Positions 27,131 to 43,957 of a stretch of 64,000 nucleotides of DNA are shown here, piece after piece. A model generated the notes under the pieces. The model was not told the DNA's origin. It ran no database searches and saw only the letters and a list, made by a program, of their open reading frames with translations. The stretch covers positions 1 to 64,000 of the forward strand of contig CAKRSU010000001.1 in the NCBI GenBank assembly GCA_934401755.1, in the 5' to 3' direction. Source of the DNA: an uncultured Oxalobacter sp. GTDB taxonomy: Bacteria > Pseudomonadota > Gammaproteobacteria > Burkholderiales > Burkholderiaceae_D. A program made the position numbers and the translations under genes. The stretch's first letter is position 1. Each line of letters opens with the position of its first letter.

Positions 27131-28903
27131 CTAAGCCACTTTAAACGTAGATTCTAATCTGTTTCGCAATCCATCTGCTTCTGATTCCTTTTTAATCCCA
27201 TTTTTTCTACTGGCGGGCCAAAGATTAAATTCTCGGACTTCTCCGAGCCCTTTAGGTTCACGATGAGCAATGACAATAATACCGCTATGGGGTAATTGTT
27301 CTCGAATAATCCGATAAAGATCATTTTCTGCTTGCCTATCCAGCGAACTGGTTGCTTCATCAAGAACAACCCAATCTGGTGCTGCATAAAGAATGCGAGC
27401 AATCTGCAATCTTTGTTGTTCTCCCCCAGAAAGACGATAATCATCATCTAACGCCGTTTTTTGCTCTAACTGCTGAATATGTCGATCTTCATTTAATCCA
27501 ACCCTTGATAGAATCTGCTGAATTCGCGCAATATCACCTAAAGATTCTGGATAACACACACATTCAGCCAAACTCCCGAGTGGTAAATACACTTTTTGAG
27601 GAGAAAAATAAATTTTCCCAGGAGGAATTTGAATATTTCCCTCACAATATCGCCAAATACCCGACAAGGCTTTAATAAGCGTTGATTTTCCAATACCAGA
27701 AGGCCCATTAATCCAAACGGTCTCTCCAGGATTAATATCCAAACAATTAATATGAATTAACGATTCACCTGATGGCGTATCCACCCATAAATCTCGGATA
27801 TGCAATGCCTGATCGAAAGATTTAACGATTTTCACTCTTTTTTCAACTTCTGCTGCCGCAATCGCATCGGTTTCTTCAATAAAATCCCCGAGACGACGTG
27901 CTGTTGCACTAAGTTCTGCTAATTCACGATATGAGAAAATAAACCAAGATAACGTTGTCACCAATCGGGTAAATGCGGATCCTAATTGCATTAATCCTCC
28001 CAAAGTGACATGTCCCATCAAATAAGCAGGAAATGCTAAAAATAAGGGAATCCGTAATACGGTCATATAATATGGCCGCGTAAAAATGCCCAAAATGAAT
28101 TCTCGGTTCATTCTTTGCTTCCAATTACTGAGAATCTGCTTATAACGCTGATCAATAATATGGCGTTCTGCGCCTTCACCATTTTCTAAAGCAACCGCTT
28201 CTTTCGATTCTCTGAGTCGCGCCAGAGCGAAACGCATATCCGCTTCACGATGCTGGCTAATCACATTTAAACGCATGAGCGGAGCTCCCATCCAGTGCGT
28301 TAATCCACTTGAGATAAGCACATAAATAGGCGCTGCAATAATTAAATAATGATGAATCACAATTTCACGATCCCCCCACGGAATACTTAAAGGAAAATCA
28401 GACAATTTCCAAAGCAAAAAAGCATACGTTGATAATCCCACTAAGCTTGTAAAAAGATCTAATCCTCGACCTGTTAAACGTTCAACAAAAATACGGCAAT
28501 CTTCTGAAATACGCTGATCAGGATTATCCATTGTCGATTGAGTATCCATTTGCATATGCCAGTAAACCTTATGATCAAACCAACGCTTTAACATACAATC
28601 GGTTAATGTGGTACGCCATTTCATTTGAATCAGCTGCCGAATATAAGAAGCCACTAAGAACTGAAACGAATTAATCCCTGTAATGACCGCAAATACGCCA
28701 ATCTGATATAAAGCCCCTAGTCCGTCATATTTTTCTAATGCACTATAAAAATCCTTATTCCAGTGAATCATCTTTAATGCTAAAAAAATCTCTGAAAGAT
28801 TTAACAATAAGACGATGACACAGTAAAGAATCGCAATTCGCCCTCCTTTTCCTTTTATACTAATAGCTGTTAAATTAAAAATTCGTTTAAGTGTCGTATT
28901 CAT
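27131..28903 (-). CDS. SbmA/BacA-like ABC transporter with fused membrane and ATPase domains
   Basis: About 590 residues from ATG 28903, chosen because it falls just after the ChaN stop; an upstream in-frame start would overlap that gene. The N-terminal half is an ABC_membrane_2 (SbmA/BacA, YddA) domain with about six helices. The C-terminal ATPase has Walker A GPSGIGKST, signature LSGGEQQRLQIAR, Walker B DWVVLDEATSS and the switch His in VIAHRE. Relatives move peptides, vitamin B12 or long-chain lipids. Last gene of the tonB-exbBD-receptor-ChaN run, so a role in moving haem or a related ligand is suggested by context only. Confidence 0.85.
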   Translation of the reverse strand: MNTTLKRIFNLTAISIKGKGGRIAILYCVIVLLLNLSEIFLALKMIHWNKDFYSALEKYDGLGALYQIGVFAVITGINSFQFLVASYIRQLIQMKWRTTLTDCMLKRWFDHKVYWHMQMDTQSTMDNPDQRISEDCRIFVERLTGRGLDLFTSLVGLSTYAFLLWKLSDFPLSIPWGDREIVIHHYLIIAAPIYVLISSGLTHWMGAPLMRLNVISQHREADMRFALARLRESKEAVALENGEGAERHIIDQRYKQILSNWKQRMNREFILGIFTRPYYMTVLRIPLFLAFPAYLMGHVTLGGLMQLGSAFTRLVTTLSWFIFSYRELAELSATARRLGDFIEETDAIAAAEVEKRVKIVKSFDQALHIRDLWVDTPSGESLIHINCLDINPGETVWINGPSGIGKSTLIKALSGIWRYCEGNIQIPPGKIYFSPQKVYLPLGSLAECVCYPESLGDIARIQQILSRVGLNEDRHIQQLEQKTALDDDYRLSGGEQQRLQIARILYAAPDWVVLDEATSSLDRQAENDLYRIIREQLPHSGIIVIAHREPKGLGEVREFNLWPASRKNGIKKESEADGLRNRLESTFKVA

Positions 28904-28916
28904 CGGACTATTTGTT

Positions 28917-29912
28917 TTATTTTTTCTTGTGTTCAATTGCTTCACTCAAAGCATTTTTGGGCATATTTTTTCGAATAGCTCGCGCTTCTGGCATATCAAG
29001 CCTGAAAATAGCATCAGCGTAGGGACGTTCAGGCAATCCATTACCCGCTAAAATATTTGGCATTAATGTCCAATTTTCATTCATTGATGGCAACAACACC
29101 GCGGAATTTTTAATCCCCAAATCAAATAATTGATATGGTGTTCCAAATCCATATTCAAGATGCCCTCGCCCTAAAATACCAACAATTAATGGGGCTTTTT
29201 TATTTTTCTGCTGCCAAGTTTCATAAGCATGGTAAATATTGCAAGCAAACGCACGATCCCAAGTTTGCATTGCTCGTAAAAAACGCGCTGAATCCATTGA
29301 CGAGCGTGGCAGAAATGCCGTTTTTTTAGCAGCGAGTGGCTCACGAGCCAATTTTTGCTTGGCATCAAACGAATTACGGCGCATTCCCATTCCTTGAGTC
29401 ATGGCTTGAATATGCTCCCAATACCCGGGTAAAGGAGAAGCCGCCGGCGTTAAGCCATCACGCTCTTCAATGGGAACCGCATCCCATCCTTCTTTACCAA
29501 CACGTGTTACCAATTCACGATAACAATTCAGTGCAAGCATCCGTACACGATATTGGCGACAGAAATGAAAAATCGGTAAATAAATTTCAGCCGGAAATCC
29601 CCAAACTTGATACCACTCTGATTTTTCAATGAACTGTTCTGTCGTCAGTTTTCCCTCAACCCACTCATCTAATACAGGTTGGCAACGCCGAGGAAACATC
29701 TCAAATCCCACCATTATGTCTTGGCGCTGGGTATAAAGAAATGTAATCAAATGTAATTGCCAACGATGAATCTCGGGAATATCATGAGTCTCTCCCATTA
29801 AGACAACCGCTTTTTGGGATAAATTTTCAATCAGACGAGGCAATTCAATCGCTTTACCCGTTGCCGGGTAAAGCCATGTCCCTCGTTGATGGAAAACGTG
29901 ATCAGTTTCCAT
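28917..29912 (-). CDS. ChaN-family haem-binding uptake protein
   Basis: 331 residues of the ChaN/DUF399 family (PF04187): VVLMGETHDIPEIHRWQL and MVGFEMFPRRCQPVLDEWVEG at the N-terminal half, and IVGILGRGHLEYGFGTPYQL near the C-terminus. ChaN of Campylobacter is an iron-regulated lipoprotein that binds stacked haems through a tyrosine. This protein has no signal peptide or lipobox from ATG 29912, so it appears cytoplasmic unless the start is wrong. It begins 11 bases after the receptor stop. Confidence 0.85.
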   Translation of the reverse strand: METDHVFHQRGTWLYPATGKAIELPRLIENLSQKAVVLMGETHDIPEIHRWQLHLITFLYTQRQDIMVGFEMFPRRCQPVLDEWVEGKLTTEQFIEKSEWYQVWGFPAEIYLPIFHFCRQYRVRMLALNCYRELVTRVGKEGWDAVPIEERDGLTPAASPLPGYWEHIQAMTQGMGMRRNSFDAKQKLAREPLAAKKTAFLPRSSMDSARFLRAMQTWDRAFACNIYHAYETWQQKNKKAPLIVGILGRGHLEYGFGTPYQLFDLGIKNSAVLLPSMNENWTLMPNILAGNGLPERPYADAIFRLDMPEARAIRKNMPKNALSEAIEHKKK

Positions 29913-29923
29913 AACGAGACTCC

Positions 29924-32251
29924 TTAAAACGTTGCCTGTAATCCCACACTAAATACCCGTCCTGGTGCAACATATAATTCAAGTGGATTGGTATAGGCAG
30001 AAGACGCACTTGGCGCATCAGCGGTTTGGCCTGCCGCGTTATAATCAAAATAGCGCCGGTTAAAGATATTCGTGACAGCTGCATTGACTTTCAAATATTT
30101 ATTAATCTGCCAATTAATATAGCCATCAAATACGGAATAACCGCCTGGTTTAAAATATTCTTTATCAGAAGTCCGTGTTACGCCACGTGCAAACGTCCCA
30201 AATAATTCCGTCGTTAGTCCATATTCAGGTTGTTCCCATTTCAAACCAATAACAGCAGTTAGTGGTGATGCCCCATCATAGGCCGTCCACTGATCGCTAT
30301 CCCCTTTTTGTTTGCCATATTGCCAATCAATCGAACCATTAACAGACCAATTACGCGCAAATTGCCATTCACCGGATGCCTCAAGTCCCCACAATCTCAC
30401 TTTATCAATATTTAAATAAGTAATTTTGCTATAGTTAGATTCTGGTAAATATTGCCATCCCTGAATAAAGTTTGTATAACGACTATAAAAAGCCCCTAAA
30501 GAGAACCATCCTTTGTCCCATTCTCCTCGCAATCCCAATTCATACGAATCCACTTCTTCAGGCTTGAGATTGGGATTCGGAACAACCGTTATCCCCATTG
30601 ATGGCATATCGTAAGTGGTATATAGCTGCTCTGAAGTCGGCATCTTAAACCCTTTAGCAAAACGACCATATGCCGAATAGATATCATTGAACTTATATAA
30701 AAGACCAATCTGGGGTAACCATTTATCTTCGCCCATCTTCCGTGGTTCATCCCCTTTAATAGCCTTATACCCCCCTCCGGATTCAGGATCTAGCGAATAA
30801 TGCGCCCGACGAACCCCTGGTGTAACCGTTAACCGATCATCAAACAACTTAATCTCATCTTGCAAATACAAATCGGCCCGTGTTGTTTTAGCGTTAGCAA
30901 AAATAGCCCCAGCTGCACTACCTTTTTTAATCGTTGTTTTTCCGTTCGTAAATTCCCGATTGGTCACCGAATAATCCGTTTTTGTATAGTCGCCTTGGAA
31001 TCCATAAGTTAATTTATGGTGGGTATTCATCCAATCGAAACTAGACGTTAACTGAATATCTCCTTGGAGAAAATCTTGATCATATACGTTATTTCTGGAT
31101 GTTTTATAATCATTACCAAACCGAATATATTGATTTTTGCTTTTAACGGTTCGACGTTGAGGCGAATAAGAAAGATGCCAAATCACATTATCTAACCAAG
31201 TTTGATGAGTATCCCATTGATGCTCAAAAGCCAAGCGATAACGACGCATTTCCTGTGTACGAAAATCACGACCATCATTCGCAATATACTTGAGGCCACC
31301 CATCGCCGTACTTGGCTGCATATAATTATAAATATTCTGGCTATCGGTATCTGACGCATACATTTCGCCCGTCAATTTAAATTGATGATCTTGGTTCGGA
31401 CGATAAACCATTTTAGCCATTAAATTATTGACTTCAGCATCTGTTGGATTGAAATCATCACAGCCATAACCAATACGTCCACAAATCCCCCAACGTCCCC
31501 CATCGGCTTTAGCCGTTTTTAAATTAACTTCATGGTATTCACGATGAGTATATGAGACTAACGCAGAAAGATCCTGATTAAATTTTCCGGCAAACATCAC
31601 ATTTTCAGTATTGCCATTATTTAGACCATCATAGTTATAAGAGGCTTTTGCACCAAATAACTTACCGCCTTGTAGCAAATCATCGGGATCTAATGTCCGA
31701 TAGGCCACCATACCGCCCATCGCATCGGCTCCCCATAAAACAGAAGCAGGACCTCGTTGGATTTCGACGGCTTTAATCGTCGACATATCGACAAAATTAC
31801 GACCTCCTTTATTCCCGTTCATTTGATTGGCTTCAGCAACCCGAGAACCATCAACCGTCGTTAAAATTCGATTCAAACCAACACCACGAATGGTAAAACC
31901 ACTACCTTCTCCACCAAACTGACCATTCGCACTCGTTGAAATACGATTGACATGCACTCCTGGCGTATGACGAATCAACTCTTCAATATTATTAACATTA
32001 TGATTTTCAATCGTTTTCCGAGTAATCACATTAACAGTTTGAGGGACATCTAATGCTCTTGCTTTCTGGCGAGTTGCTGTAACAGTAATTGCCTCCATTT
32101 GCATGGCGTCTCCTGCTGATTGCTCGGTTAAAACGCTTTCTTTGGGAGATTCGATGCCTTTTTGTAGCGCATTTTCAGCTCTAGACTGCAATGCTAAAAA
32201 AAGCGCAGAGGCTAAACAAACACCTCTCACAACGTAATACGGTTTCTTCAT
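29924..32251 (-). CDS. TonB-dependent haem/haemoglobin receptor
   Basis: 775 residues. Signal peptide ending near QSRA, TonB box region around EAITVTATR (residues 53-61), plug domain with IEELIRHTPGVHVNR and VEIQRGPASVLWGADAMGG, then a 22-strand barrel ending in VGLQATF. A haem-receptor signature region is present: FKMP at 535-538 in the FRAP position and NPNL at 559-562. The His normally found between them is absent. The context with tonB, exbBD, ChaN and hutX-hutW supports haem as the ligand, though a haem-protein complex or another porphyrin is possible. Confidence 0.87.
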   Translation of the reverse strand: MKKPYYVVRGVCLASALFLALQSRAENALQKGIESPKESVLTEQSAGDAMQMEAITVTATRQKARALDVPQTVNVITRKTIENHNVNNIEELIRHTPGVHVNRISTSANGQFGGEGSGFTIRGVGLNRILTTVDGSRVAEANQMNGNKGGRNFVDMSTIKAVEIQRGPASVLWGADAMGGMVAYRTLDPDDLLQGGKLFGAKASYNYDGLNNGNTENVMFAGKFNQDLSALVSYTHREYHEVNLKTAKADGGRWGICGRIGYGCDDFNPTDAEVNNLMAKMVYRPNQDHQFKLTGEMYASDTDSQNIYNYMQPSTAMGGLKYIANDGRDFRTQEMRRYRLAFEHQWDTHQTWLDNVIWHLSYSPQRRTVKSKNQYIRFGNDYKTSRNNVYDQDFLQGDIQLTSSFDWMNTHHKLTYGFQGDYTKTDYSVTNREFTNGKTTIKKGSAAGAIFANAKTTRADLYLQDEIKLFDDRLTVTPGVRRAHYSLDPESGGGYKAIKGDEPRKMGEDKWLPQIGLLYKFNDIYSAYGRFAKGFKMPTSEQLYTTYDMPSMGITVVPNPNLKPEEVDSYELGLRGEWDKGWFSLGAFYSRYTNFIQGWQYLPESNYSKITYLNIDKVRLWGLEASGEWQFARNWSVNGSIDWQYGKQKGDSDQWTAYDGASPLTAVIGLKWEQPEYGLTTELFGTFARGVTRTSDKEYFKPGGYSVFDGYINWQINKYLKVNAAVTNIFNRRYFDYNAAGQTADAPSASSAYTNPLELYVAPGRVFSVGLQATF

Positions 32252-32306
32252 ATAGAAACTTTCTATTCCTTTTAAAAGTTAAATAAAAATAAGCTCTCCT
32301 GATATT

Positions 32307-32723
32307 TTATTTTTCAGGTTGAGTCACAAATCCGATACGAGTAAGCCCCGATTGACCGGCATCAGACAAGGCTTGTGCAACGGATTGATAATCCGCATGC
32401 TGATCTGCATAAATATGGACTTCTGGCATCGTTTTTTTTTGAGCTGCCGTCATAAAAATCAGACGGCTTTCTTCTCGGCTAACGGCTTTACCATCAATTA
32501 AACGACTGCCATCAGCACGAATGGAAACAGCAATTTTTGCTGGCACTTGAATGTCCCCCGAAGCATTAGCTTGAGGAAGATCAATTTTCATTGCTTGCCC
32601 CATTAATGGCGCTGTTACAATAAAAATGACGAGCAACACCAACATGACATCAATTAATGGAATCATGTTCATCGCACTCATAGGAGAAGCATTTCTGCGA
32701 CTTGAAAATTTACTCTCTAGCAT
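32307..32723 (-). CDS. exbD: ExbD, TonB energising complex
   Basis: 138 residues. One N-terminal membrane helix containing the proton-pathway Asp (MNMIPLIDVMLVLLVIFIV) and a periplasmic domain ending TRIGFVTQPEK. It couples proton flow to TonB with ExbB. Its ATG overlaps the exbB stop by one base (TAATG), indicating coupled translation. Confidence 0.95.
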   Translation of the reverse strand: MLESKFSSRRNASPMSAMNMIPLIDVMLVLLVIFIVTAPLMGQAMKIDLPQANASGDIQVPAKIAVSIRADGSRLIDGKAVSREESRLIFMTAAQKKTMPEVHIYADQHADYQSVAQALSDAGQSGLTRIGFVTQPEK

Positions 32724-33499
32724 TATGCCCCCTTACGATTGATGGCAATAACATTGCCATTTCGCTGATTACGATCAGCTACCTCAGAATCAGGAATAGA
32801 CTGCTTAATGGTATAAAGTTTCCCGGTTGTTAAAAACGTTAACAATTCATTGGCAAATCCATCAAGTTTTCCTAATGTCACGTTATTCATTCTAAGCAAC
32901 CAGTTGTACCCAATAACAGCTGGAATTGCCGTTGCCAAACCAATTCCTGTCATAATCAATGCTTCACCAACGGGACCTGCAATTTGATCTAATCCAAAAG
33001 ATCCCCCTGAGCCAATCCCAATTAACGCATGATAGATTCCCCAAACCGTTCCAAAAAGTCCAACAAACGGCGCGGTAGAAGCAATGGTTGCTAATATTGT
33101 CAAACCATTTTCAAGTTTCGCGGCTTCTTCATCAATGACCATACGCATCGTACGCATAATAAATTCCTGCCGCGTTCCTGCCTCAGAAAGTTTAGAAGCC
33201 CCATAAGTTTCATGATGTGCTTTTGCATGTTGAGCATGAGCCGTAAGATGTGAAAAAGGACAACGGATCCCATGAACTTGGATTTCATGCTGAACACTAT
33301 CGAGTGAAGTCGCATTCCAAAAAAGCAATAAAAAATCTCGACTATTCTTTTTTTGTTTCCAAGCGAAAATCCCTTTTGCGACTAAAATCGTCCACGAAAC
33401 AACAGACATTGCAATTAATACAAAAAAAAGAAATTTTCCTAAAAAATCACTTTGACTAATAAAATGACTAAACCCAAAGGCACTCGTTGATACTTCCAT
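32723..33499 (-). CDS. exbB: ExbB, TonB energising complex
   Basis: 258 residues from ATG 33499, supported by a GAAGGAAG ribosome site; an upstream in-frame start is less likely. MotA/TolQ/ExbB channel domain with three helices and the motif ATIASTAPFVGLFGTVWGIYHA. It partners ExbD and TonB in the inner membrane to drive the receptor. It follows tonB by about 57 bases. Confidence 0.94.
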   Translation of the reverse strand: MEVSTSAFGFSHFISQSDFLGKFLFFVLIAMSVVSWTILVAKGIFAWKQKKNSRDFLLLFWNATSLDSVQHEIQVHGIRCPFSHLTAHAQHAKAHHETYGASKLSEAGTRQEFIMRTMRMVIDEEAAKLENGLTILATIASTAPFVGLFGTVWGIYHALIGIGSGGSFGLDQIAGPVGEALIMTGIGLATAIPAVIGYNWLLRMNNVTLGKLDGFANELLTFLTTGKLYTIKQSIPDSEVADRNQRNGNVIAINRKGA

Positions 33500-33556
33500 T
33501 GTGGCAACTTCCTTCTTTCTAATAACGATCAATCAATGCTTAAAATTAGGCGTTTT

Positions 33557-34381
33557 TTATTCATTCAAGTTAAAGCGGTAAGGAATAATAGCGGCAACCG
33601 TTAACACAACACCATTTTGAATATAGGGATAAAACGAACTGCGTCTAGCTGCCACAAGTGCTGCATCATCTAGTCGCCGATATCCTGATGAACGTTCCAA
33701 TATTGCGGTTTGAACGGAGCCATCCCCCCTCACTACAACTTTAATCATTGCTTGTCCGATTTCATGACGTTCAATTGATATCGCGGGATATTGAGGCCGA
33801 ACAGCATGCCGATAACGCAATGCAGAAGCAGCGACCTTGATGATTTCTGCACGATTTCCCGTACCATTTCCTATACCGTTGCCAACCCCATTTCCAATTC
33901 CATTTCCTTTTCCTGCCCCTATTCCATGACCAACACCTATTCCACGCCCAAATCCAATGCCACCTTCGTTTCCGATTCCCTTTTCACTCGTTGAAGCATT
34001 CGCAACTTGATGAGATACCGTTGGCGTCTTTTGCTGTTTATTGGCAGCCGAAAAGTGAAAATCCTTTTTTTCGATACTTTTAGAAATAATCAGCTGCGAA
34101 TGCTTTTGAACATTAACGGTCTTTACCACACTCTCTTTTTGAGAGATCGGAAAAACATTAACCCTCATAACGGATTCTTCAGCTCCCTTACTTCCTTTTC
34201 CATTACCACCACCGCCCCCTTGAATTGCTGAAGCACTCAAAACCACCGAATTATTTTGAGAAATCATGCCAATTAATAAACAATGAATTAAAGTCACCGT
34301 AATGCAGAGTCCTCGAACGGCTGATTTCGATAATAAATAACGATGCTGATAAAAAAATGGGGACTGATTAGATTCCAACAT
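33557..34381 (-). CDS. tonB: TonB with glycine-rich periplasmic spacer
   Basis: 274 residues. N-terminal membrane anchor near residues 22-45, a variable periplasmic segment, then a C-terminal TonB domain (RPQYPAISIERHEIGQAMIKVVV and LDDAALVAARRSSFYPY). The family usually has a Pro-Lys/Pro-Glu spacer; here it is replaced by repeated G-x-G-x and GNGIGN units (about residues 140-180). First gene of the uptake unit, directly downstream of the Fur-box region. Confidence 0.93.
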   Translation of the reverse strand: MLESNQSPFFYQHRYLLSKSAVRGLCITVTLIHCLLIGMISQNNSVVLSASAIQGGGGGNGKGSKGAEESVMRVNVFPISQKESVVKTVNVQKHSQLIISKSIEKKDFHFSAANKQQKTPTVSHQVANASTSEKGIGNEGGIGFGRGIGVGHGIGAGKGNGIGNGVGNGIGNGTGNRAEIIKVAASALRYRHAVRPQYPAISIERHEIGQAMIKVVVRGDGSVQTAILERSSGYRRLDDAALVAARRSSFYPYIQNGVVLTVAAIIPYRFNLNE

Positions 34382-34545
34382 GCTTCATTCACTTTTTCTT
34401 CACAACTCAATTTCCATTGACGATAAAAATAATTCTCATTATCATCTCGCTTTGTTTAACTGAGAATAATTCTCATTATCATTTCAATGAGTACGAATGA
34501 TAATAGTTCTCATTCTCAATAGCAACAATTTTTTAAGAGGAATGT
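34382..34545. promoter_or_regulatory. Divergent tonB/hutX control region with three Fur-box-like sites
   Basis: Three 19-bp matches to the GATAATGATAATCATTATC pattern on one strand or the other: 34425-34443, 34462-34480 and 34496-34514. Each contains TTCTCATT and AT-rich arms. The last lies about 30 bases before the hutX start. Iron-loaded Fur binding here would repress both units together. Established Fur consensus, with the assignment by eye. Confidence 0.85.
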
Positions 34546-35103
34546 ATGCAAAAAAAACAACGAGAGATAAACAGCAATTTTCCTGAAACAAAAGAAATGC
34601 TACGAGCTCAACTCGCCGAAAAACCGGGAACGATGTTAGAAGCTTTTGCTAAAAATCACGGCTTAACCGTTGCTGAAGTGATTGAATTGCTTCCCAATAA
34701 TACTTGGAAGAAAATGGATAAAGCATTCTTAATCGATTTACTGAAAACACTTCCTGATATCGGTAAAGTAACAACTGTTATTCACACAGCTGATGTCATT
34801 TTTGAATTTTCTGGACACTTTCCACGAGGCGGTATGGCTCATGGATTCTACAATCTCTCATTTAAATCGCCTTTTCATGGTCATATCCGTATAAATAATT
34901 GCCAATCTATCTACTTAATTGAACGCCCTTTCATGAATACACAAACAGTCAGTGTGCAATTCGTTAATACAGAAGGCGACGTTATGTTCAAAGTATTTGC
35001 TGGCAGAGATGAAAATCATCACCTTATCCAAAAACAAGTCGAAACGATGCGGCAATGGTTTACGGATGATTTTCAAAGATCATTGATGGAGAAAACACAA
35101 TGA
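34546..35103 (+). CDS. hutX: Haem-utilisation cytosolic carrier HutX
   Basis: 185 residues of the ChuX/HutX family. A helical N-terminus (LRAQLAEKPGTMLEAFAKNHGLTVAEVIELLP region) leads to the beta-sheet haem-binding body (DVIFEFSGHFPRGGMAHGFYNL). It binds and hands on haem in the cytoplasm. AAGAGG ribosome site precedes ATG 34546. The next gene overlaps its stop by four bases (ATGA). Confidence 0.93.
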   Translation: MQKKQREINSNFPETKEMLRAQLAEKPGTMLEAFAKNHGLTVAEVIELLPNNTWKKMDKAFLIDLLKTLPDIGKVTTVIHTADVIFEFSGHFPRGGMAHGFYNLSFKSPFHGHIRINNCQSIYLIERPFMNTQTVSVQFVNTEGDVMFKVFAGRDENHHLIQKQVETMRQWFTDDFQRSLMEKTQ

Positions 35104-35753
35104 GTGGAATTGATTGGTTATTATTTGGAGGCACAAGAAATACGGGACTAGAAATCGCCAAATTAGCGATTAACCGTGGAAAACGTGTCTCAGCAATGGT
35201 TCGGCCAGAAAGCTATGACTCAGCCTTAAGATCACTGGGAGTATCTATTATTCATGGCGATGCTTTTTCTTTAAACGACTGTATTCATGCCGTTAAATTA
35301 ACCCAACCTCAATATGTTATTAGTACGATGGGCGGCAAAAATAAAGATGGGCGCCGCATCTGTGCGATTGGAAATATTCATGTTGCCAAAGCATTAAGCC
35401 ATGCGAAAAGACTTGAACGTTATTTATTAGTTACGTCTATGGGATGTGGCGATCAATACGCAACAACCAGTGATCAAGTCAAAAAGTTTTTGGGAGAAGC
35501 ACTTTTAGCAAAAACTGAAGCGGAAAATTTTCTACAAGATAGCCAATTACCTTGGACAATCGTCCGTCCAGGAGGACTTGAAAACACACCAGCAAGCGGC
35601 CGTTATTTTTTAACCACAAAACCGGATAAACAACACAAAAGCTACCTTTCTCGTTTAGATGTCGCACAAGCCATTATTCAATTGCTTGAAGATCCATATT
35701 GGTTGCACCGTATTGTATCTGTTCAAAATGCAGCGCTCATGGAGGATAAATAA
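35100..35753 (+). CDS. ChuY-like NAD(P)-binding reductase, probable anaerobilin reductase
   Basis: 217 residues of the atypical SDR/NAD(P)-binding type. N-terminal nucleotide loop FGGTRNTGLEIAKLA, then VISTMGGKNKDG, YLLVTSMGCGDQ and WTIVRPGGLENTP. In enterohaemorrhagic E. coli the equivalent ChuY, next to ChuW and ChuX, reduces the anaerobilin made by ChuW. Here the gene lies between hutX and hutW, overlapping one and three bases from the other, the same trio in another order. Assignment as reductase of the haem-opening product is inferred from position and fold. Confidence 0.8.
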   Translation: MSGIDWLLFGGTRNTGLEIAKLAINRGKRVSAMVRPESYDSALRSLGVSIIHGDAFSLNDCIHAVKLTQPQYVISTMGGKNKDGRRICAIGNIHVAKALSHAKRLERYLLVTSMGCGDQYATTSDQVKKFLGEALLAKTEAENFLQDSQLPWTIVRPGGLENTPASGRYFLTTKPDKQHKSYLSRLDVAQAIIQLLEDPYWLHRIVSVQNAALMEDK

Positions 35754-35756
35754 CGA

Positions 35757-37130
35757 ATGGATCTTTCTCTTTTTTACGCCAAAAAATCTGATTTTCCGAT
35801 ACGAGATGCCTTTACACAAGAAACGATAAAAATGCCTTCTGCAGCAAGCATGATGCAAAAACCGCCTAAATGGACAGGGGGTACTTTTCAAGAATTTGCA
35901 GAAGAGGCTTTTATGGCCGATCCTTCTCGACCACTCGCATTATATCTACATATCCCATTTTGCCATCATCATTGTACGTTTTGTCCTTTTTATATCAATC
36001 AAACCAAAAAGAATTTTAGCCAAGACTATACAACATTGGTGTTACGTGAAATCGAATTAACCGCAGATATTCTAAAACACGTCATTGATAAGCGAAAAGT
36101 CGATACCATTTATTTTGGCGGAGGCACCCCTAGTGACCTTGATGAAGCGGATATGGCAGGACTATTGACCTCACTATTTGATCATTTCAATATCCCCAAA
36201 ACGGCTGAAGTCACTATTGAAGGACGAACAACAGGTTTTAGTGCTTCTAAAGCAAAAACTTGGAAAGCAGCAGGCGCCAATCGCTTCTCATTAGGCATTC
36301 AGTCTGCAAATACTCGATTACGTAAACGATTGGGACGACTGCAAAGTCGTGAAGAATTACAAGCAACCCTAAGCGGTATCGGAGAAAGTGGCGCCTCTTT
36401 AATTATCGATATGCTATATGGGCTCCCTGAACAAACTGAAGAAATTTTACTCAATGATATTCAATTTGTTTCAGAAAAAACGCCAATTGATGGGCTTGAT
36501 CTCTATGAATTACGTATTTTTCCGGGAAGTCCTCTCGCTAAAGCAATTGAACGAGGTAAAATCGCGCCAGCGCCTTCATTTGAAGACACTGCATTAATGT
36601 TTCATTCTGCCTATCATGCTTTAGAAATACAAGGCTTTCGCCATTTTTCCCCAAAACATTGGCGACGGCATCCCAAAGAACGTTCACTATATAATCGTCT
36701 TGCCTCCCAACAATGCGATATGATTCCTTTCGGCTCTGCAAGCGGAGGACGACTGCATAATATTGGCCTTGGTAATGCTCGTGACCTTAAAAGCTATACT
36801 GAAAAAATTGAATCAGGAGTCAAACCTTTAAGCAGAATTGCATCCTCGCCATTACATCATCCTTCAACGGAGTTTAACAAAATACTGTCTTCATATACTG
36901 AATGGTTGTGTTTACCCCCGATTGCACTATGGCCAAAATCACACCGTGAATTCGCTGCAATATTACTCCAGCAATGGCAAGACGCGGGATTACTTTTTCC
37001 CCAAAATCATCTAGATGAAGATCCTTTATTAATGGGCCCAAATGATGGATTTCGTATGACAAGTGCTGGATACTTTTGGAATCGAAAACTGAATGTTTTA
37101 ATTCAACAATTTTTAAATACGCCCGTTTAA
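35757..37130 (+). CDS. hutW: Anaerobic haem-degrading radical SAM methyltransferase HutW/ChuW
   Basis: 457 residues, HemN-like. Radical SAM cluster motif C-x3-C-x2-C at Cys69, Cys73 and Cys76 (HIPFCHHHCTFC), then YFGGGTPSDLD and LGIQSANTRLRKRLGR. The family opens the porphyrin ring without oxygen and frees iron. It is distinguished from coproporphyrinogen dehydrogenase by its neighbours hutX and the ChuY-like gene. No oxygen-dependent haem oxygenase is visible in the window, which suggests anaerobic or low-oxygen growth. Confidence 0.93.
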   Translation: MDLSLFYAKKSDFPIRDAFTQETIKMPSAASMMQKPPKWTGGTFQEFAEEAFMADPSRPLALYLHIPFCHHHCTFCPFYINQTKKNFSQDYTTLVLREIELTADILKHVIDKRKVDTIYFGGGTPSDLDEADMAGLLTSLFDHFNIPKTAEVTIEGRTTGFSASKAKTWKAAGANRFSLGIQSANTRLRKRLGRLQSREELQATLSGIGESGASLIIDMLYGLPEQTEEILLNDIQFVSEKTPIDGLDLYELRIFPGSPLAKAIERGKIAPAPSFEDTALMFHSAYHALEIQGFRHFSPKHWRRHPKERSLYNRLASQQCDMIPFGSASGGRLHNIGLGNARDLKSYTEKIESGVKPLSRIASSPLHHPSTEFNKILSSYTEWLCLPPIALWPKSHREFAAILLQQWQDAGLLFPQNHLDEDPLLMGPNDGFRMTSAGYFWNRKLNVLIQQFLNTPV

Positions 37131-39168: not shown

Positions 39169-40572
39169 ATGAACAAGATATCCCATCCTAACATCGACAA
39201 CGATCAACTGATTGAGGCTTTAAATGGAAATCAGAATGTTCAATTTGAATTGGGAAACGACTTTGCATCTGGCATTGAGCAAGATATGGAACAAGCCGCC
39301 TTTTGGTTTCGCCAAGCAGCCGATAAAGGACACATCAAAGCGCAATCTCGACTAGGACAAATGTATTTGAATGGAGAAGGCATTCCTAAAAATCATAAAC
39401 AGGCCCTTAATTGGTTACAAAAAGCCGCCAATGAAGGAGACGCTAATGCGCAATACCATCTTGCTATGATGTACAAAAATGGGCAAGGAGTTGCTATTGA
39501 TTTATACCAAACGGCTTACTGGGCAGAAAAAGCGGCTCGTCAAGGACATATTAATGCCCAACACGAAATTGCTTTTTGCTATTACAACGGAAATGGGGTA
39601 ACAGCAGATGCACCCCAAGCATTTCATTGGTGGCATCAAGCCGCAAAAGCTGGACATTGCGATGCTGCATTTTATTTAGGATGGTTATATAGCCAAGGAT
39701 TAGGCATTCCTCATAATGACTCTGATGCCGTCTACTGGTATCAAAAAGCGGCTAATCAAGGGCAAAATGCGGCTCAATTTAATCTTGGCTGCGCCTACCA
39801 TGAAGGAATTGGAATAGAAGCCAATCAAGAATTAGCGCTTTTATGGTGGCAAAAAGCGGCAAAAAATGGCAACGCCAATGCCCAATACAATTTAGGACTC
39901 GCATTTGAAGAGGGATTGGGTACCCCTAAAAATCTCTTAAAAGCACACAATTGGTATCAGCTTGCTGCAAAAAATCATCATACTGAAGCTCAGCTTCGAC
40001 TGGGCAATATGTATCAAGAAGGCATTCCATTTGAAATCAATTTTGAAAAAGCAGTGTATTGGTATCAACAAGCGGCACAACAAGGAAATAGCCAAGCACT
40101 ATTTCACTTAGCTCAAGCCTATCAAGACGGTCATGGGATTACACAAAATCTTGAACAAGCATTGATTTGCTATCAACAATCTGCTCGGAAAAACAACCGA
40201 GATGCACTCTTTAATTTAGGTTGTCTTTATCAAGAGGGAATTATCGTACCGAAAGATTCAATTCACGCATTTTCATATTGGCTAAAAGCTGCGAATGCCA
40301 ACCATCCAAAAGCACAACATAATACGGCCGTTTGTTATGAATATGGTTTCGGGACTGAAAAAGATATAAAAGCCGCATTTGTTTGGTATGAAAAAGCAGC
40401 AAAAAACGGCCAACCTGACGCCCAATTTAATATGGGTAGAGCTTATGAATTGGGGATCACTGTTCCCAAAGACGCTATTCGATCTCAGATTTGGTACAGT
40501 CGTGCTGCAAAACAAGGCCATCAAGACTCGCTCAATAAACTCCTAAAATTAAGAAACAATTTGCTACAATGA
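39169..40572 (+). CDS. Sel1-repeat protein, 12 repeats
   Basis: 467 residues made almost entirely of about twelve 36-residue Sel1 repeats (AQYxLGxxYxxGxGVxxDxxxAxxWxxxAAxxGH). Sel1 arrays form a right-handed superhelix that binds partner proteins. No signal peptide, so cytoplasmic or exported by a non-Sec route. Sel1 proteins often act as adaptors or as secreted effectors in host-associated bacteria. The start has no good Shine-Dalgarno. A second Sel1 gene follows 106 bases on, in the same direction. Confidence 0.88.
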   Translation: MNKISHPNIDNDQLIEALNGNQNVQFELGNDFASGIEQDMEQAAFWFRQAADKGHIKAQSRLGQMYLNGEGIPKNHKQALNWLQKAANEGDANAQYHLAMMYKNGQGVAIDLYQTAYWAEKAARQGHINAQHEIAFCYYNGNGVTADAPQAFHWWHQAAKAGHCDAAFYLGWLYSQGLGIPHNDSDAVYWYQKAANQGQNAAQFNLGCAYHEGIGIEANQELALLWWQKAAKNGNANAQYNLGLAFEEGLGTPKNLLKAHNWYQLAAKNHHTEAQLRLGNMYQEGIPFEINFEKAVYWYQQAAQQGNSQALFHLAQAYQDGHGITQNLEQALICYQQSARKNNRDALFNLGCLYQEGIIVPKDSIHAFSYWLKAANANHPKAQHNTAVCYEYGFGTEKDIKAAFVWYEKAAKNGQPDAQFNMGRAYELGITVPKDAIRSQIWYSRAAKQGHQDSLNKLLKLRNNLLQ

Positions 40573-40678
40573 CCCAAATTTCGCTACTTTCAGAATCATC
40601 ACCTTTTTATTCAGAGAACCTTTTCAAATGGGCTATTTTGCTTTCTGGCCTTTAATTTCACGATAAAACAAAAATATT

Positions 40679-42421
40679 ATGACAGTATTTGAAAATAATA
40701 TAAAAGATCCTCTAACTGCCCCTAAAGACCAGAATTCTACCGAAAAGAAAACTCAATTATTTGACCAAAATACTTTTATCCTAGCGTCTAACGATTATTT
40801 TATTCCGTTTCCAGATCAAGCTGATATAGAAGATGCTCTTGATGATTGTTACGGTCAAAGTACAAAAAATAAGCGATTTTGCGTGCTCGCTAAAAAAGAT
40901 TATTCATCTTTCATTCAAGCAACCTATCAAATCGATCATGCTGAAGAAGATTGTTGGTACTTAGAATGTCAAATTGCTTCAAAAAATGAAATATTTCAGC
41001 ACAGTTATGCCGTAATACCCAACGCAAAAAGTCGACAAACTGCATTCATTAATCAAATGACTCTCATTAAAACAGCATTTGCCAGTTTTTTAAAAAATAA
41101 AGGGGATCACTTTCCCAAAATCAATCTCGAATGGCACAAACTCGATCATGAAACTCATATAACCAATAATGCCATTAAATGGGATAATGATGCCCCAGAT
41201 ATTTTTTGTACTCCTGATGCCTTATTTGATCAAGGAATGGGCTGTCGAGAAAAAGAAGAAGCTTCCCAAGCGGTGATATGGTGGCGAAAAGCAGCCCGAA
41301 TGGGGCATGGTCGTGCACAATGCTTTCTGGCAAGTGCTTATTATACGGGCTATGGCTGTCGAAAGAATTTTGAAAAATTCATTTATTGGGAAAAACAAGC
41401 GGCTAATAATGGAATTATCACGTCTCAATATCATCTAGGACGAGCGCATTATTACGGAGAAAAAGTTAATCAAGATATCCCTATTGCCTACCAATACATT
41501 ACAAAGGCTGTAAAAGCGGGCAGTCCTCGAGCAATGAATGCATTAGCCTACATATGTCTTAATCATCCAACACTGACTTATGAAGGAAATATTGTTGATT
41601 TATTGGAACAATCAGCTAGTCAAGGCATTCAAGCAGCATTACTCAATCTGGGAGATTTGTATTATTGGGGATACAAAAACATCCCTATCGATTATGAACA
41701 AGCTTTCAAATATTTTCAAAAAGCATCAAAATCCCAATCGCTTCATGCGAGATCGATTGCTAAAATTTATTTAGCTTTCATGACTCATTATGCAATGGTC
41801 AAAAAACCAATCGAAAAAAAAACTAAAAAAATAAAAGTAGACGCCTTTAAAGCAATTCAAATCCCGCCTTTTTATCCTGATCCAACAAAACAACTATTGG
41901 TCTATCAAGATCAAGTGATTATCAACGCTCAAGCAGGTCACTCTAAAGACCAATATCAACTAGGCTGCTTTTATTTAAAAGGAACAATCGGTATCAAACA
42001 AAACAAAAAGCGAGCAATTTATTGGTTTCAAAAAGCAGCGGAACAACAAAATGCTGATGCCATGAATGCCTTATTATCTCCTTCTCTTTTAAATACTTCC
42101 AAACAACATCGGATTAATATACTTCGATTATCTATTCCCAACCTTCAAAAAGGCGATCTTCAAACAATCCTCAATATTGCCCGTTTATTGAGTCAAAATA
42201 CCGACTCTTTTGATCACTTAGCAATAAGCTACGCGCTTTATAGATCTGCACTATCTCATCAAATGGATCTTTTAGAAGAATTCCATAACTTCTGTAAACG
42301 ATTAGATAAAAAAACTGGCCGCCGGCTTTTAAAAAAGCCCTCGCTCTCTTTAGAAGAAACCATTAAAAAAATTCAAAAAATGGTTAAACTCCATCTACAC
42401 ACAAAAAGTAATACCCCGTAA
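40679..42421 (+). CDS. Sel1-repeat protein with unique N-terminal domain
   Basis: 580 residues. Residues 1 to about 170 do not match Sel1 and are not recognised; they are acidic and aromatic (ILASNDYFIPFPDQADIEDAL, then WYLECQIASKNE). From about 175 there are Sel1 repeats (AVIWWRKAARMGHGRAQCFLAS and on), a charged linker near 375-410, further repeats, and a helical tail. The build suggests an adaptor with its own input domain. No signal peptide; weak ribosome site. Confidence 0.82.
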   Translation: MTVFENNIKDPLTAPKDQNSTEKKTQLFDQNTFILASNDYFIPFPDQADIEDALDDCYGQSTKNKRFCVLAKKDYSSFIQATYQIDHAEEDCWYLECQIASKNEIFQHSYAVIPNAKSRQTAFINQMTLIKTAFASFLKNKGDHFPKINLEWHKLDHETHITNNAIKWDNDAPDIFCTPDALFDQGMGCREKEEASQAVIWWRKAARMGHGRAQCFLASAYYTGYGCRKNFEKFIYWEKQAANNGIITSQYHLGRAHYYGEKVNQDIPIAYQYITKAVKAGSPRAMNALAYICLNHPTLTYEGNIVDLLEQSASQGIQAALLNLGDLYYWGYKNIPIDYEQAFKYFQKASKSQSLHARSIAKIYLAFMTHYAMVKKPIEKKTKKIKVDAFKAIQIPPFYPDPTKQLLVYQDQVIINAQAGHSKDQYQLGCFYLKGTIGIKQNKKRAIYWFQKAAEQQNADAMNALLSPSLLNTSKQHRINILRLSIPNLQKGDLQTILNIARLLSQNTDSFDHLAISYALYRSALSHQMDLLEEFHNFCKRLDKKTGRRLLKKPSLSLEETIKKIQKMVKLHLHTKSNTP

Positions 42422-42543
42422 AAAATGAGCCGTCGCTTAAAATCAAATTCCTCTACCATATTTATCAATATAAACTGATTACAACAATTTGCTATTTAAC
42501 GTATCGGAAATCTATAATTTCTCCACCAAAATGGAGAGATATT

Positions 42544-43902
42544 TTGAATAGACAAAATAATCAGAATCATTTGATGACCGAAGGTCCAATTGCAAAAAAG
42601 ATTTGCTTTTTTTCAATTCCCTTAATTTTGGGAAACTTTTTGCAATTACTCTACAATACTGTTGATTCCATCATTGTCGGTAATTTTTTAGGAAGTCATG
42701 CATTAGCCGCCGTTGGCTCAACAACTTCGCTTATTTTTCTTTTAGTCGCATTTAGTCAAGGCGCTTCTGTTGGAGCTGGCGTGGTTATGGCCCAATATCT
42801 TGGCGCAGGTAATCTCAAAAATGTCCGAGCAACCACCCACACTGCATTAGCGATTGCATTACTTTTAGGACTAATATTAACGATTGGGGGGATTTTCTTA
42901 AGTCGCCCTTTACTTATTTGGATGAATACGCCATCAGATGTTTTTGCTGACTCATTAAGCTACTTTCAACTCTATTGTGGAGGTCTTCTTTTTAGCGTCA
43001 TTTACAATATGGCCGCTGGTATCATGAATGCAGCAGGCAATTCAAAACGTCCTTTATATTATTTAGGCTGTGCCTCAATCATTAATATGATTTTGGATAT
43101 TGTTTTAGTCAATGGAATCGGTATCGGCATTAATGGGGCTGCAATAGCAACAGATATCAGTCAATTCATTGCCTGTCTATTTGCCATAAAACATTTGATA
43201 GATACCTCGGCAGACTACAAAATTCAGCTAAGTAAAATAGCAATTCATCGCCGAATAGCCAAACAAATTATCCATATTGGCCTTCCTACAGGCATTCAAA
43301 ACATGGTTATTTCCTTTTCAAATGTACTCGTACAATCTGGGGTGAATAGCTTTGGCGCCGCGGCCATGGCGGGTTTTGCTGCCTTTTTACGAATTGATGG
43401 TTTTAACATCCTCCCTATTTTGAGTATCAGCATGGCAATGACAACCTTTACCGGACAAAACTATGGCGCAGGCAATATTGAACGCATCAAAAAAGGAATT
43501 AAAGTCGTCCTTATTATGGGATTTAGCTATACCATTTTTATTGGAAGTCTCGTTTTGGCTTTTTCAGATCCGATCATGAGACTATTTAGTCATGATGCGA
43601 GCGTAATTGCCTATGGTCGTCTCGCGATGCATTATTTTTGTCCCTTTTATTTCCTTTTAGGCATTCTTCAAGGGCTAGCAGGAACGGTCAGAGGAACCGG
43701 AAAAAGCATTCCTCCTATGGTTGTTCTACTTATCTCATTATGCTTATTTAGAATAATATGGCTGCAATTTATTTTGCCATTATTTCATTCTATTGATGGT
43801 CTTTATGCTTTATACCCCGTTTCATGGGCATTAGGCATGTTAATGATGATTTTGTATGCATGGAAAGGTCACTGGCTACAGAACACAAAAAGGGTATCAT
43901 GA
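42544..43902 (+). CDS. MATE-family multidrug/Na+ or H+ efflux protein
   Basis: 452 residues, about twelve helices, with the MATE opening MTEGPIAKKICFFSIPLILGN and the repeat motif at NTVDSIIVGNFLGS. I chose the TTG at 42544 because GGAGAG stands five bases before it; ATG 42574 is the alternative. MATE proteins expel cationic drugs or metabolites using ion gradients. It lies between Sel1 genes, downstream of two in the same direction and convergent with the third. Confidence 0.9.
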   Translation: MNRQNNQNHLMTEGPIAKKICFFSIPLILGNFLQLLYNTVDSIIVGNFLGSHALAAVGSTTSLIFLLVAFSQGASVGAGVVMAQYLGAGNLKNVRATTHTALAIALLLGLILTIGGIFLSRPLLIWMNTPSDVFADSLSYFQLYCGGLLFSVIYNMAAGIMNAAGNSKRPLYYLGCASIINMILDIVLVNGIGIGINGAAIATDISQFIACLFAIKHLIDTSADYKIQLSKIAIHRRIAKQIIHIGLPTGIQNMVISFSNVLVQSGVNSFGAAAMAGFAAFLRIDGFNILPILSISMAMTTFTGQNYGAGNIERIKKGIKVVLIMGFSYTIFIGSLVLAFSDPIMRLFSHDASVIAYGRLAMHYFCPFYFLLGILQGLAGTVRGTGKSIPPMVVLLISLCLFRIIWLQFILPLFHSIDGLYALYPVSWALGMLMMILYAWKGHWLQNTKRVS

Positions 43903-43957
43903 CAATATTCGAAGACAAGTATCTCCTTTCAACACGCTAAAAATGATGACTATTTTT

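What the first reader, a model, noticed from the sequence alone, without database searches (positions are those of the whole stretch)
27131..37130. Haem locus with ChaN and an SbmA-like ABC protein in place of the usual periplasmic and inner-membrane haem importer
The two Fur-controlled units include TonB-ExbBD, a haem-type receptor, HutX, a ChuY-like reductase and HutW, but no HmuTUV-type binding protein or permease. A ChaN-family protein and a fused SbmA/BacA-like ABC protein are the only candidates for moving haem past the periplasm. SbmA-like proteins are known for peptides or B12, not haem. A new haem or porphyrin importer route is possible.
Basis: partly seen in the sequence, partly recalled or inferred. 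Interest (0 to 1): 0.75.

Follow-up and report, generated by a model that had tools for sequence, protein, structure and literature searches.

The report
Haem locus with YddA-type ABC transporter
A bacterial iron-from-haem gene cluster carries an unusual inner-membrane pump where a dedicated haem importer is normally found, and because the same kind of pump sits beside the same kind of haem receptor in many other bacteria, it is a good candidate for an overlooked way of bringing haem or a related molecule into cells.

Summary
The genes are as described, but two interpretations change. The ABC protein is a full-length YddA/BclA-type (SbmA-related, ATPase-fused) transporter. Among 397 Hyphomicrobiales genomes, 22 carry an orthologue (437-574 bits; next 370). 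All 22 sit beside a similar TonB haem-type receptor, 20 with an in-line HutX/HemS-like gene; none of 13 inspected paralogue loci does. Four plasmid loci repeat the cassette. Gene order is shuffled while linkage persists, so the ABC belongs to the uptake system. (1) The ChaN-family protein has no signal peptide, so it is probably cytosolic, not a periplasmic carrier. (2) 'In place of HmuTUV' holds at the locus but not generally: 18 of 22 ABC-bearing genomes have HmuTUV or HmuV elsewhere, including the one with the window's HutX-HutW layout; four have none that I could identify, three of them sharing the window's gene order. The window's own genome is not held. Best reading: a binding-protein-independent ABC importer of haem or a related tetrapyrrole, delivering to cytosolic HutX/ChaN and, here, HutW/ChuY. 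Substrate and direction are inferred.

The parts
27131..28945 (-). YddA/BclA-type (SbmA-related) ABC half-transporter with fused ATPase; probable true start at 28903
   Evidence: PF06472 147.3 bits (cut-off 24.4) and PF00005 71 bits (25); key ATPase-motif residues invariant or at least 90% conserved in 41 sequences; model pLDDT 85.4, best Foldseek match Rv1819c 6tqe
28917..29912 (-). ChaN-family (PF04187) protein without signal peptide, probably cytosolic
   Evidence: PF04187 177 bits vs 27.7; 11 bases separate it from the receptor stop, so a longer N-terminus would overlap the receptor gene; homologue N-termini; model pLDDT 89.9, best match C. jejuni ChaN 2g5g
29924..32251 (-). TonB-dependent haem/haemoglobin-type receptor of a distinct subfamily (GFKMPT..QLY-like box)
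   Evidence: TIGR01786 411.7 bits vs 323.75 and TIGR01785 391.8 vs 316.85; closest solved structure PhuR 8the; subfamily residues in 20 receptors
32307..32723 (-). ExbD/TolR-like protein
   Evidence: PF02472 93 bits vs 25.4; TolR/ExbD models below their cut-offs
32723..33532 (-). ExbB/TolQ-like protein
   Evidence: PF01618 107.4 bits vs 22.9; TolQ/ExbB models below their cut-offs
33557..34381 (-). TonB-like protein with glycine-rich linker
   Evidence: PF03544 55.8 bits vs 24.6; TIGR01352 53.2 vs 27.1
34428..34519 (.). Three Fur-box-like 18-mers at 37-bp spacing in the divergent promoter (34428-34445, 34465-34482, 34502-34519)
   Evidence: the DNA search (pattern read from the window): 3 matches, 0.42 expected, 0 of 100 shuffles reached 3; weaker with a recalled consensus; sequence. 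Regulation by Fur is inferred
34546..35103 (+). HutX, cytosolic haem carrier
   Evidence: TIGR04108 185.2 vs 110; ChuX structures 2ovi and 6u9j E 1e-32
35100..35753 (+). ChuY-like NAD(P)-binding protein (candidate anaerobilin reductase)
   Evidence: PF13460 115.6 vs 27.2; ChuY 5guy E 6e-22 and ShuY-like 5ffq E 1e-21
35757..37130 (+). HutW/ChuW-type radical SAM enzyme (anaerobic haem degradation)
   Evidence: TIGR04107 399.7 vs cut-off 400; radical-SAM cysteine motif CHHHCTFC visible in the translation

Best explanation
The locus is a haem (or closely related tetrapyrrole) uptake and breakdown unit in which the inner-membrane step is carried out by a substrate-binding-protein-independent, YddA/BclA-type ABC half-transporter acting as a homodimer. 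Proposed steps: (1) the TonB-powered receptor brings the tetrapyrrole across the outer membrane; (2) the ABC protein takes it from the periplasm directly and imports it using ATP; (3) cytosolic HutX and the signal-less ChaN-family protein receive it; (4) HutW opens the ring without oxygen and ChuY reduces the product, releasing iron. Shown here: gene identities, linkage, family separation, conserved ATPase motifs, lack of a ChaN signal peptide, Fur-box-like repeats. Inferred: homodimerisation, import direction, substrate, hand-over between cytosolic proteins, Fur control.
For: All 22 ABC orthologues found among 397 Hyphomicrobiales genomes lie beside a receptor 44-61% identical to the module receptors, and 20 of 22 have an in-line HutX/HemS-like gene. 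None of 13 paralogue loci inspected has receptor, HutX or ChaN nearby, nor has the one of G1040. Four plasmid loci repeat the cassette with different gene order. Orthologues and paralogues separate on the ABC tree, with the window among the orthologues (support 1.0 for the paralogue clade, 0.54 for the orthologue clade, midpoint root). ChaN-like and ABC orthologues co-occur: 15 genomes with both against about 1 expected from 22 and 19 of 397 (Fisher p about 1e-18, not corrected for kinship). An alphaproteobacterium (L199) has receptor-ABC-ChaN divergent from HutX-HutW, both over their cut-offs. Importers are known in this fold: Rv1819c takes up B12 and no binding protein was found for it (PMC3603451, passages).
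Against: HmuV over cut-off is present in 14 of 22 ABC-bearing genomes against 16 of 47 others and four more have a HmuTUV locus, among them G1091, the HutW-bearing near-copy of the window. So the ABC is usually an addition to HmuTUV and could handle something other than haem. A dipeptide-type ABC importer set lies next to the cassette in two loci (G001, L003 2758-8130, read by eye; Paracoccus, L050), and E. coli's Dpp can import haem (recalled). The receptors lack any His between the FRAP-like and NPNL-like boxes in 20 of 20, where classical haem receptors carry a ligand (recalled). Direction cannot be read from sequence: structural neighbours include exporters. Seven of 22 ABC-bearing genomes have no ChaN at E 1e-20; two of these have a divergent linked one.
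Confidence: 0.47

Rival explanations
1. The ABC protein is an importer for the receptor's ligand, but the ligand is not free haem: another metalloporphyrin, a haem-peptide or a cobalamin-like tetrapyrrole, while HmuTUV elsewhere imports haem.
For: 18 of 22 ABC-bearing genomes have HmuTUV or HmuV; module receptors are about 25-31% identical to the HmuTUV-linked receptors of four such genomes; FKMP box with invariant Met and no His before the NPNL-like box in 20 of 20; relatives carry B12 or peptides (PMC3603451 passages, PMC13316013 section 6).
Against: The receptors pass the haem/haemoglobin receptor cut-offs in the window and in L199, the neighbours are HutX/HemS-like, and HutW is present in the window and L199. 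Four of 22 genomes show no identifiable HmuTUV.
Confidence: 0.27
2. The ABC protein is an exporter that removes excess haem, porphyrin or a bilin product made during haem uptake.
For: The fold is the exporter-type (type IV) ABC fold, with ABCD1 and ABCC proteins among the structural neighbours; haem uptake loci need protection from haem toxicity (general knowledge).
Against: Constant pairing with a TonB receptor (22 of 22) rather than with degradation enzymes: HutW was seen in 1 of the 22 stretches. Characterised bacterial relatives of the SbmA/BclA group are importers.
Confidence: 0.17
3. The ABC gene is a general peptide transporter that lies in the haem locus by chance or shared regulation, and an unseen HmuTUV (or a Dpp-type importer) does the importing.
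For: The window's genome is not held, so HmuTUV may be elsewhere; 18 of 22 relatives have HmuTUV or HmuV.
Against: 22 of 22 linkage versus 0 of 13 for inspected paralogues, with gene order shuffled among lineages, is not expected from chance.
Confidence: 0.09

Closest known systems
HmuTUV / PhuTUV haem importers
   Same: Follows a TonB-dependent haem receptor and feeds cytosolic HutX/ChuX/HemS-type carriers
   Different: No periplasmic binding protein (PF01497) and no FecCD permease (PF01032) in the window's locus; the ABC has an exporter-type fold with fused ATPase
YddA/BclA full-length ABC transporters (SbmA/BacA relatives)
   Same: Same transmembrane family with fused ATPase; PMC13316013 (abstract and section 6 read) calls the YddA family full-length ABC transporters of unknown function
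   Different: Clade separate from the sampled paralogues and tied to a haem receptor; BclA proteins are described there as peptide transporters
Rv1819c of M. tuberculosis (B12 importer)
   Same: Best Foldseek match and best PDB sequence match; fused half-transporter importing without an identified binding protein
   Different: About 26-28% identity; no TonB receptor cassette (general knowledge)
Campylobacter jejuni ChaN (2g5g)
   Same: PF04187 family and best structural match of the model
   Different: 2g5g is deposited as a putative lipoprotein; the window's protein has no signal peptide and is probably cytosolic
E. coli chuTWXYU / V. cholerae hutWXZ
   Same: HutX, ChuY-like and HutW-type genes for anaerobic haem breakdown (PMC12670364 passages)
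   Different: The chu operons hold chuT, chuU and hmuV for import; here a YddA-type ABC and a ChaN-family protein

Membership tests
HmuTUV-type haem importer | Periplasmic binding protein PF01497 plus FecCD permease PF01032 in the locus | tested here: not met
   None among the nine proteins; the rest of the genome could not be searched
YddA/BclA full-length type IV ABC transporter | SbmA-like transmembrane domain (PF06472/PF05992) fused to an ATPase domain | tested here: met
   PF06472 147.3 vs 24.4, PF05992 66.8 vs 24, PF00005 71 vs 25 on one protein
YddA/BclA full-length type IV ABC transporter | Conserved ATPase motifs | tested here: met
   Residues of Walker A (S416, G417, G419, K420), signature (S506, G508, E509), Walker B (D529, E530) and H-loop (H561) invariant in 41 sequences, L505 and G507 at least 90%
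SbmA/BacA (SLiPT) secondary transporter | No ATPase domain, proton-driven | tested here: not met
   ATPase domain at residues 402-533
ChaN haem-binding lipoprotein | PF04187 domain and ChaN fold | tested here: met
   177 bits vs 27.7; 2g5g first in Foldseek, E 1.9e-11
ChaN haem-binding lipoprotein | Lipoprotein signal peptide and periplasmic site | tested here: not met
   No hydrophobic N-terminus in the window. Of 120 rows (the window's own protein included) 4 have one, 1 matched a loose lipobox pattern, 115 neither; 4 of the 115 could not be scored
ChaN haem-binding lipoprotein | Binds haem | not testable with these tools
   Needs spectroscopy
TonB-dependent haem receptor | Haem receptor profile over cut-off | tested here: met
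   TIGR01786 and TIGR01785 over cut-off
TonB-dependent haem receptor | His between FRAP and NPNL boxes (recalled) | tested here: not met
   Absent in 20 of 20 module receptors
HutW/ChuW | TIGR04107 over cut-off | tested here: inconclusive
   399.7 vs 400 in the window; 490 in the L199 homologue
HutX | TIGR04108 over cut-off | tested here: met
   185.2 vs 110
Haem transporter | Transports haem | not testable with these tools
   Needs uptake assays

The most novel reading that the evidence does not exclude
A second class of bacterial haem (tetrapyrrole) importer: a binding-protein-free, YddA/BclA-type ABC transporter paired with a distinct TonB receptor subfamily and cytosolic HutX/ChaN proteins, present in Alphaproteobacteria and in the window's (apparently betaproteobacterial) lineage, able to stand beside HmuTUV and possibly alone. 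It would assign a function to part of the YddA family and a cytosolic role to a ChaN branch.
Probability: 0.42. Interest if true: 0.8.

Novelty: new variant of a known kind. Interest (0 to 1): 0.6.

Why it matters
Gram-negative haem import is usually described as receptor, binding protein and FecCD-type ABC importer. A conserved cassette that skips the last two would change how haem users are predicted from genomes, give a testable role to the poorly understood YddA/BclA transporters, and explain haem loci without hmuTUV. Genomes that carry the cassette but no identifiable HmuTUV make the question directly testable.

Tried and rejected
Led nowhere or gave little: single-protein related-loci scan (one locus that was not the homologous place but gave a genome handle). 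ChaN in 399 genomes of the order (probably Burkholderiales; groups are not named) of the genome nearest by alanyl-tRNA synthetase (45 matches at E 1e-45, all 39-47% with open frames of 328-628 aa; of these 45 neighbourhoods I read two, G103 and G271), and ChaN in 7 genomes of one genus with 68% alanyl-tRNA synthetase identity (0 of 7, which the tool says shows nothing); so no close relative of the window's organism was found. phmmer of the single ChaN sequence against PDB found nothing; its profile found 2g5g. Paper searches (titles and abstract starts only) listed no report of this cassette; that covers only the open library.

Considered and rejected: ChaN as periplasmic shuttle; general replacement of HmuTUV; anaerobilin exporter as the general role (HutW seen in 1 of 22 stretches). 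In checking this report I first had five HmuTUV-negative genomes; some searches showed a HmuTUV locus in G1091, so it is now four, and I lowered the best reading from 0.50 to 0.47 and the novel case from 0.45 to 0.42.

Caveats: one search scored only the top 3 ABC candidates per genome and only 32, so both counts are lower bounds. The group 'Hyphomicrobiales' is the order of G001 (Pseudochelatococcus contaminans); the tool did not name it. HmuV loci were inspected in 15 of the 22 ABC-bearing genomes and in G198; for G787, G825, G886, G952, G985, G1025 and G1012 only the HmuV score was seen. In the control genomes HmuV rang in 13 of 14 but was over cut-off in 4, so only the cut-off is informative. 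For G001, G835, G940 and G900 every listed sub-cut-off hit was inspected (5, 6, 3 and 2), but one search reports more matches (13, 9 and 8 for the first three) than it lists; best HmuT there 53 bits and best HmuU 176, against at least 125 and 210 in the loci called HmuTUV. Genome completeness was not told. Of 27 genomes with lower-scoring ABC matches I inspected 14 (13, G1040).
Full report
What is there. The window carries two divergent units. On the minus strand: TonB, ExbB-like, ExbD-like, a TonB-dependent receptor, a ChaN-family protein and a fused ABC transporter. On the plus strand: HutX, a ChuY-like protein and HutW. Pfam and NCBIfam support the labels: receptor over both haem-receptor cut-offs, HutX over its cut-off, HutW 0.3 bit under its cut-off. 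ExbB/ExbD score higher as TolQ/TolR and pass neither cut-off. The divergent promoter holds three Fur-box-like 18-mers at 37-bp spacing, two identical and one with 3 mismatches (pattern taken from the window). A recalled Fur consensus gave one match with 3 mismatches, which 6 of 100 shuffles also reached. No binding protein or FecCD permease is among the nine proteins. The whole genome is not held.

Linkage to a haem receptor. A plasmid search with the ABC protein (135 records at E 1e-60) gave, as its five best records, five of the six records that hold ChaN matches at E 1e-20. I opened four of these five; each is receptor-ABC-HutX/HemS-like-ChaN, with no HmuTUV annotated in the stretch (Devosia, Rhizobium, Paracoccus, Pannonibacter), though Devosia's stretch holds another iron ABC set and Paracoccus's a dipeptide-type set. 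The sixth ChaN record (Azoarcus KH32C) has a longer ChaN without the ABC, and the next ABC match (Bradyrhizobium, 35%) is not in a haem locus. In 397 Hyphomicrobiales genomes the ABC query gave 49 genomes at E 1e-95, split into 22 at 437-574 bits and 27 at 370 bits or less (only the top 3 candidates per genome were scored). All 22 high scorers lie beside a receptor 44-61% identical to the module receptors; 20 of 22 have an in-line HutX/HemS-like gene. Of the 27 lower scorers I inspected 14: none has receptor, HutX or ChaN match over 50 bits in the fetched stretch (mostly 8-10 kb each side, less where a piece or contig ended; 13, G1040). Orthologues and paralogues separate on the tree (paralogue clade support 1.0, orthologue clade 0.54, midpoint root, 27 and 19 sequences). 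There the window groups with G001, G835 and G940, which share its receptor, ChaN, ABC order, with HutX in line. In the protein database at least 17 contig lengths are shared between the best 120 ABC and best 120 ChaN proteins, which suggests that the pair lies on the same contigs, including relatives with 67-68% ABC identity.

A near-copy of the window's plan. In G1091 (L199) HutW (490 bits vs 400) and HutX (201.7 vs 110), followed by an epimerase-like gene, run divergently from receptor (344.2 vs 323.75), ABC and a divergent signal-less ChaN (27%). This joins the ABC with anaerobic haem degradation in an alphaproteobacterium. But G1091 also has a HmuTUV locus elsewhere (HmuT 42%, HmuU 54%, HmuV matched in two pieces). 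G900 (L198) has receptor, ABC and a similar divergent ChaN; its contig ends there.

ChaN. Eleven bases separate the window's gene from the receptor stop and the protein has no signal peptide. Of 120 rows (the window's own included), 4 have a hydrophobic N-terminus by my threshold, 1 matched a loose lipobox pattern, 115 neither (4 of these not scorable); one further row looks like a truncated signal by eye. So this branch is probably cytosolic. The model (pLDDT 89.9) matches C. jejuni ChaN 2g5g first and erythromycin-esterase-like proteins next. Of the 22 ABC genomes, ChaN is linked in 9 (2 of them the divergent kind), elsewhere in the genome in 8, and not found in 5. Four genomes have a ChaN match without the ABC orthologue: two near 40% with longer frames (G800, G912), one with the match in two pieces (G198), and G1040.

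The receptor. In an alignment of 20 module receptors (the window, 15 genome loci and 4 plasmid loci; those of the seven genomes not included) all share the FKMP box with Met and a Cys pair, and none has His between that box and the NPNL-like box. HmuTUV-linked receptors of ABC-bearing genomes, where compared (four genomes), are about 25-31% identical to them. The closest solved receptor is PhuR. This could mean a different way of holding haem or a different tetrapyrrole.

HmuTUV elsewhere. HmuV (NF010068) over its cut-off occurs in 14 of the 22 ABC-bearing genomes and in 16 of 47 genomes without ABC orthologue or ChaN (Fisher p 0.036). Four more have a HmuTUV locus with a low-scoring or split HmuV: G875, G901, G943 and G1091. 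For G001, G835, G940 and G900 every listed HmuV-like hit was inspected; none has a HmuT or HmuU match in the range of the HmuTUV loci (best 53 and 176 bits against at least 125 and 210), and the loci look like siderophore or B12 systems. Not every match was listed, and only 32 candidates per genome were scored, so this is not proof of absence. The cassette is therefore usually additional to HmuTUV and in a few genomes possibly alone; three of those four share the window's gene order.

Mechanism and limits. The best-supported reading is a binding-protein-independent importer: receptor, then ABC, then cytosolic HutX/ChaN, then HutW/ChuY here. Precedent: Rv1819c-mediated B12 import for which no binding protein was found (PMC3603451, passages); IrtAB as a siderophore importer of exporter fold is recalled, its structures appear. 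HutW, HutX and ChuY functions follow PMC12670364 (passages). Against it: a dipeptide-type importer set stands next to the cassette in G001 (by eye) and in Paracoccus, and E. coli Dpp can import haem (recalled). Direction and substrate are inferred; an exporter and a non-haem ligand remain open. No paper describing this cassette appeared in the listings.

Noticed in passing
window 33557-34381: The TonB-like protein has a glycine-rich repeat (GIGNG.. type) where proline-rich TonB linkers are usual (recalled), before its C-terminal domain.
   Followed up: no
window 34428-34519: Three Fur-box-like copies at 37-bp spacing, two of them identical over 18 bases.
   Followed up: partly
window 39169-46918: Three large proteins that look built almost wholly of Sel1-type repeats (467, 580 and 986 aa) flank a MATE-like transporter; labels by eye, no family search.
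   Followed up: no
window 32307-33532: ExbB/ExbD partners of the TonB gene score higher as TolQ/TolR than as ExbB/ExbD and pass no cut-off.
   Followed up: no
L199 3550-11831: Alphaproteobacterial near-copy of the window's divergent HutX-HutW / receptor-ABC-ChaN layout, with a divergent ChaN and an epimerase-like gene beside HutX.
   Followed up: yes
L003 2758-8130: A dipeptide-type ABC importer set (binding protein, two permeases, double ATPase, by eye) runs towards the cassette in Pseudochelatococcus contaminans; a similar set is near it in Paracoccus (L050 12632-17480).
   Followed up: no
L043 8175-8573 (G198): The ChaN-like match in this genome lies in two pieces and no ABC orthologue was found; intact copies exist in other genomes.
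   Followed up: no
L048 9840-10379: In Devosia neptuniae an invasion-associated-locus-B family gene directly follows the haem cassette.
   Followed up: no
model of window 28917-29912: The ChaN-family model also resembles erythromycin-esterase-like proteins, and residues E41, H43, E71 and H251 are invariant in 54 sequences, so it may be an enzyme rather than only a carrier.
   Followed up: partly
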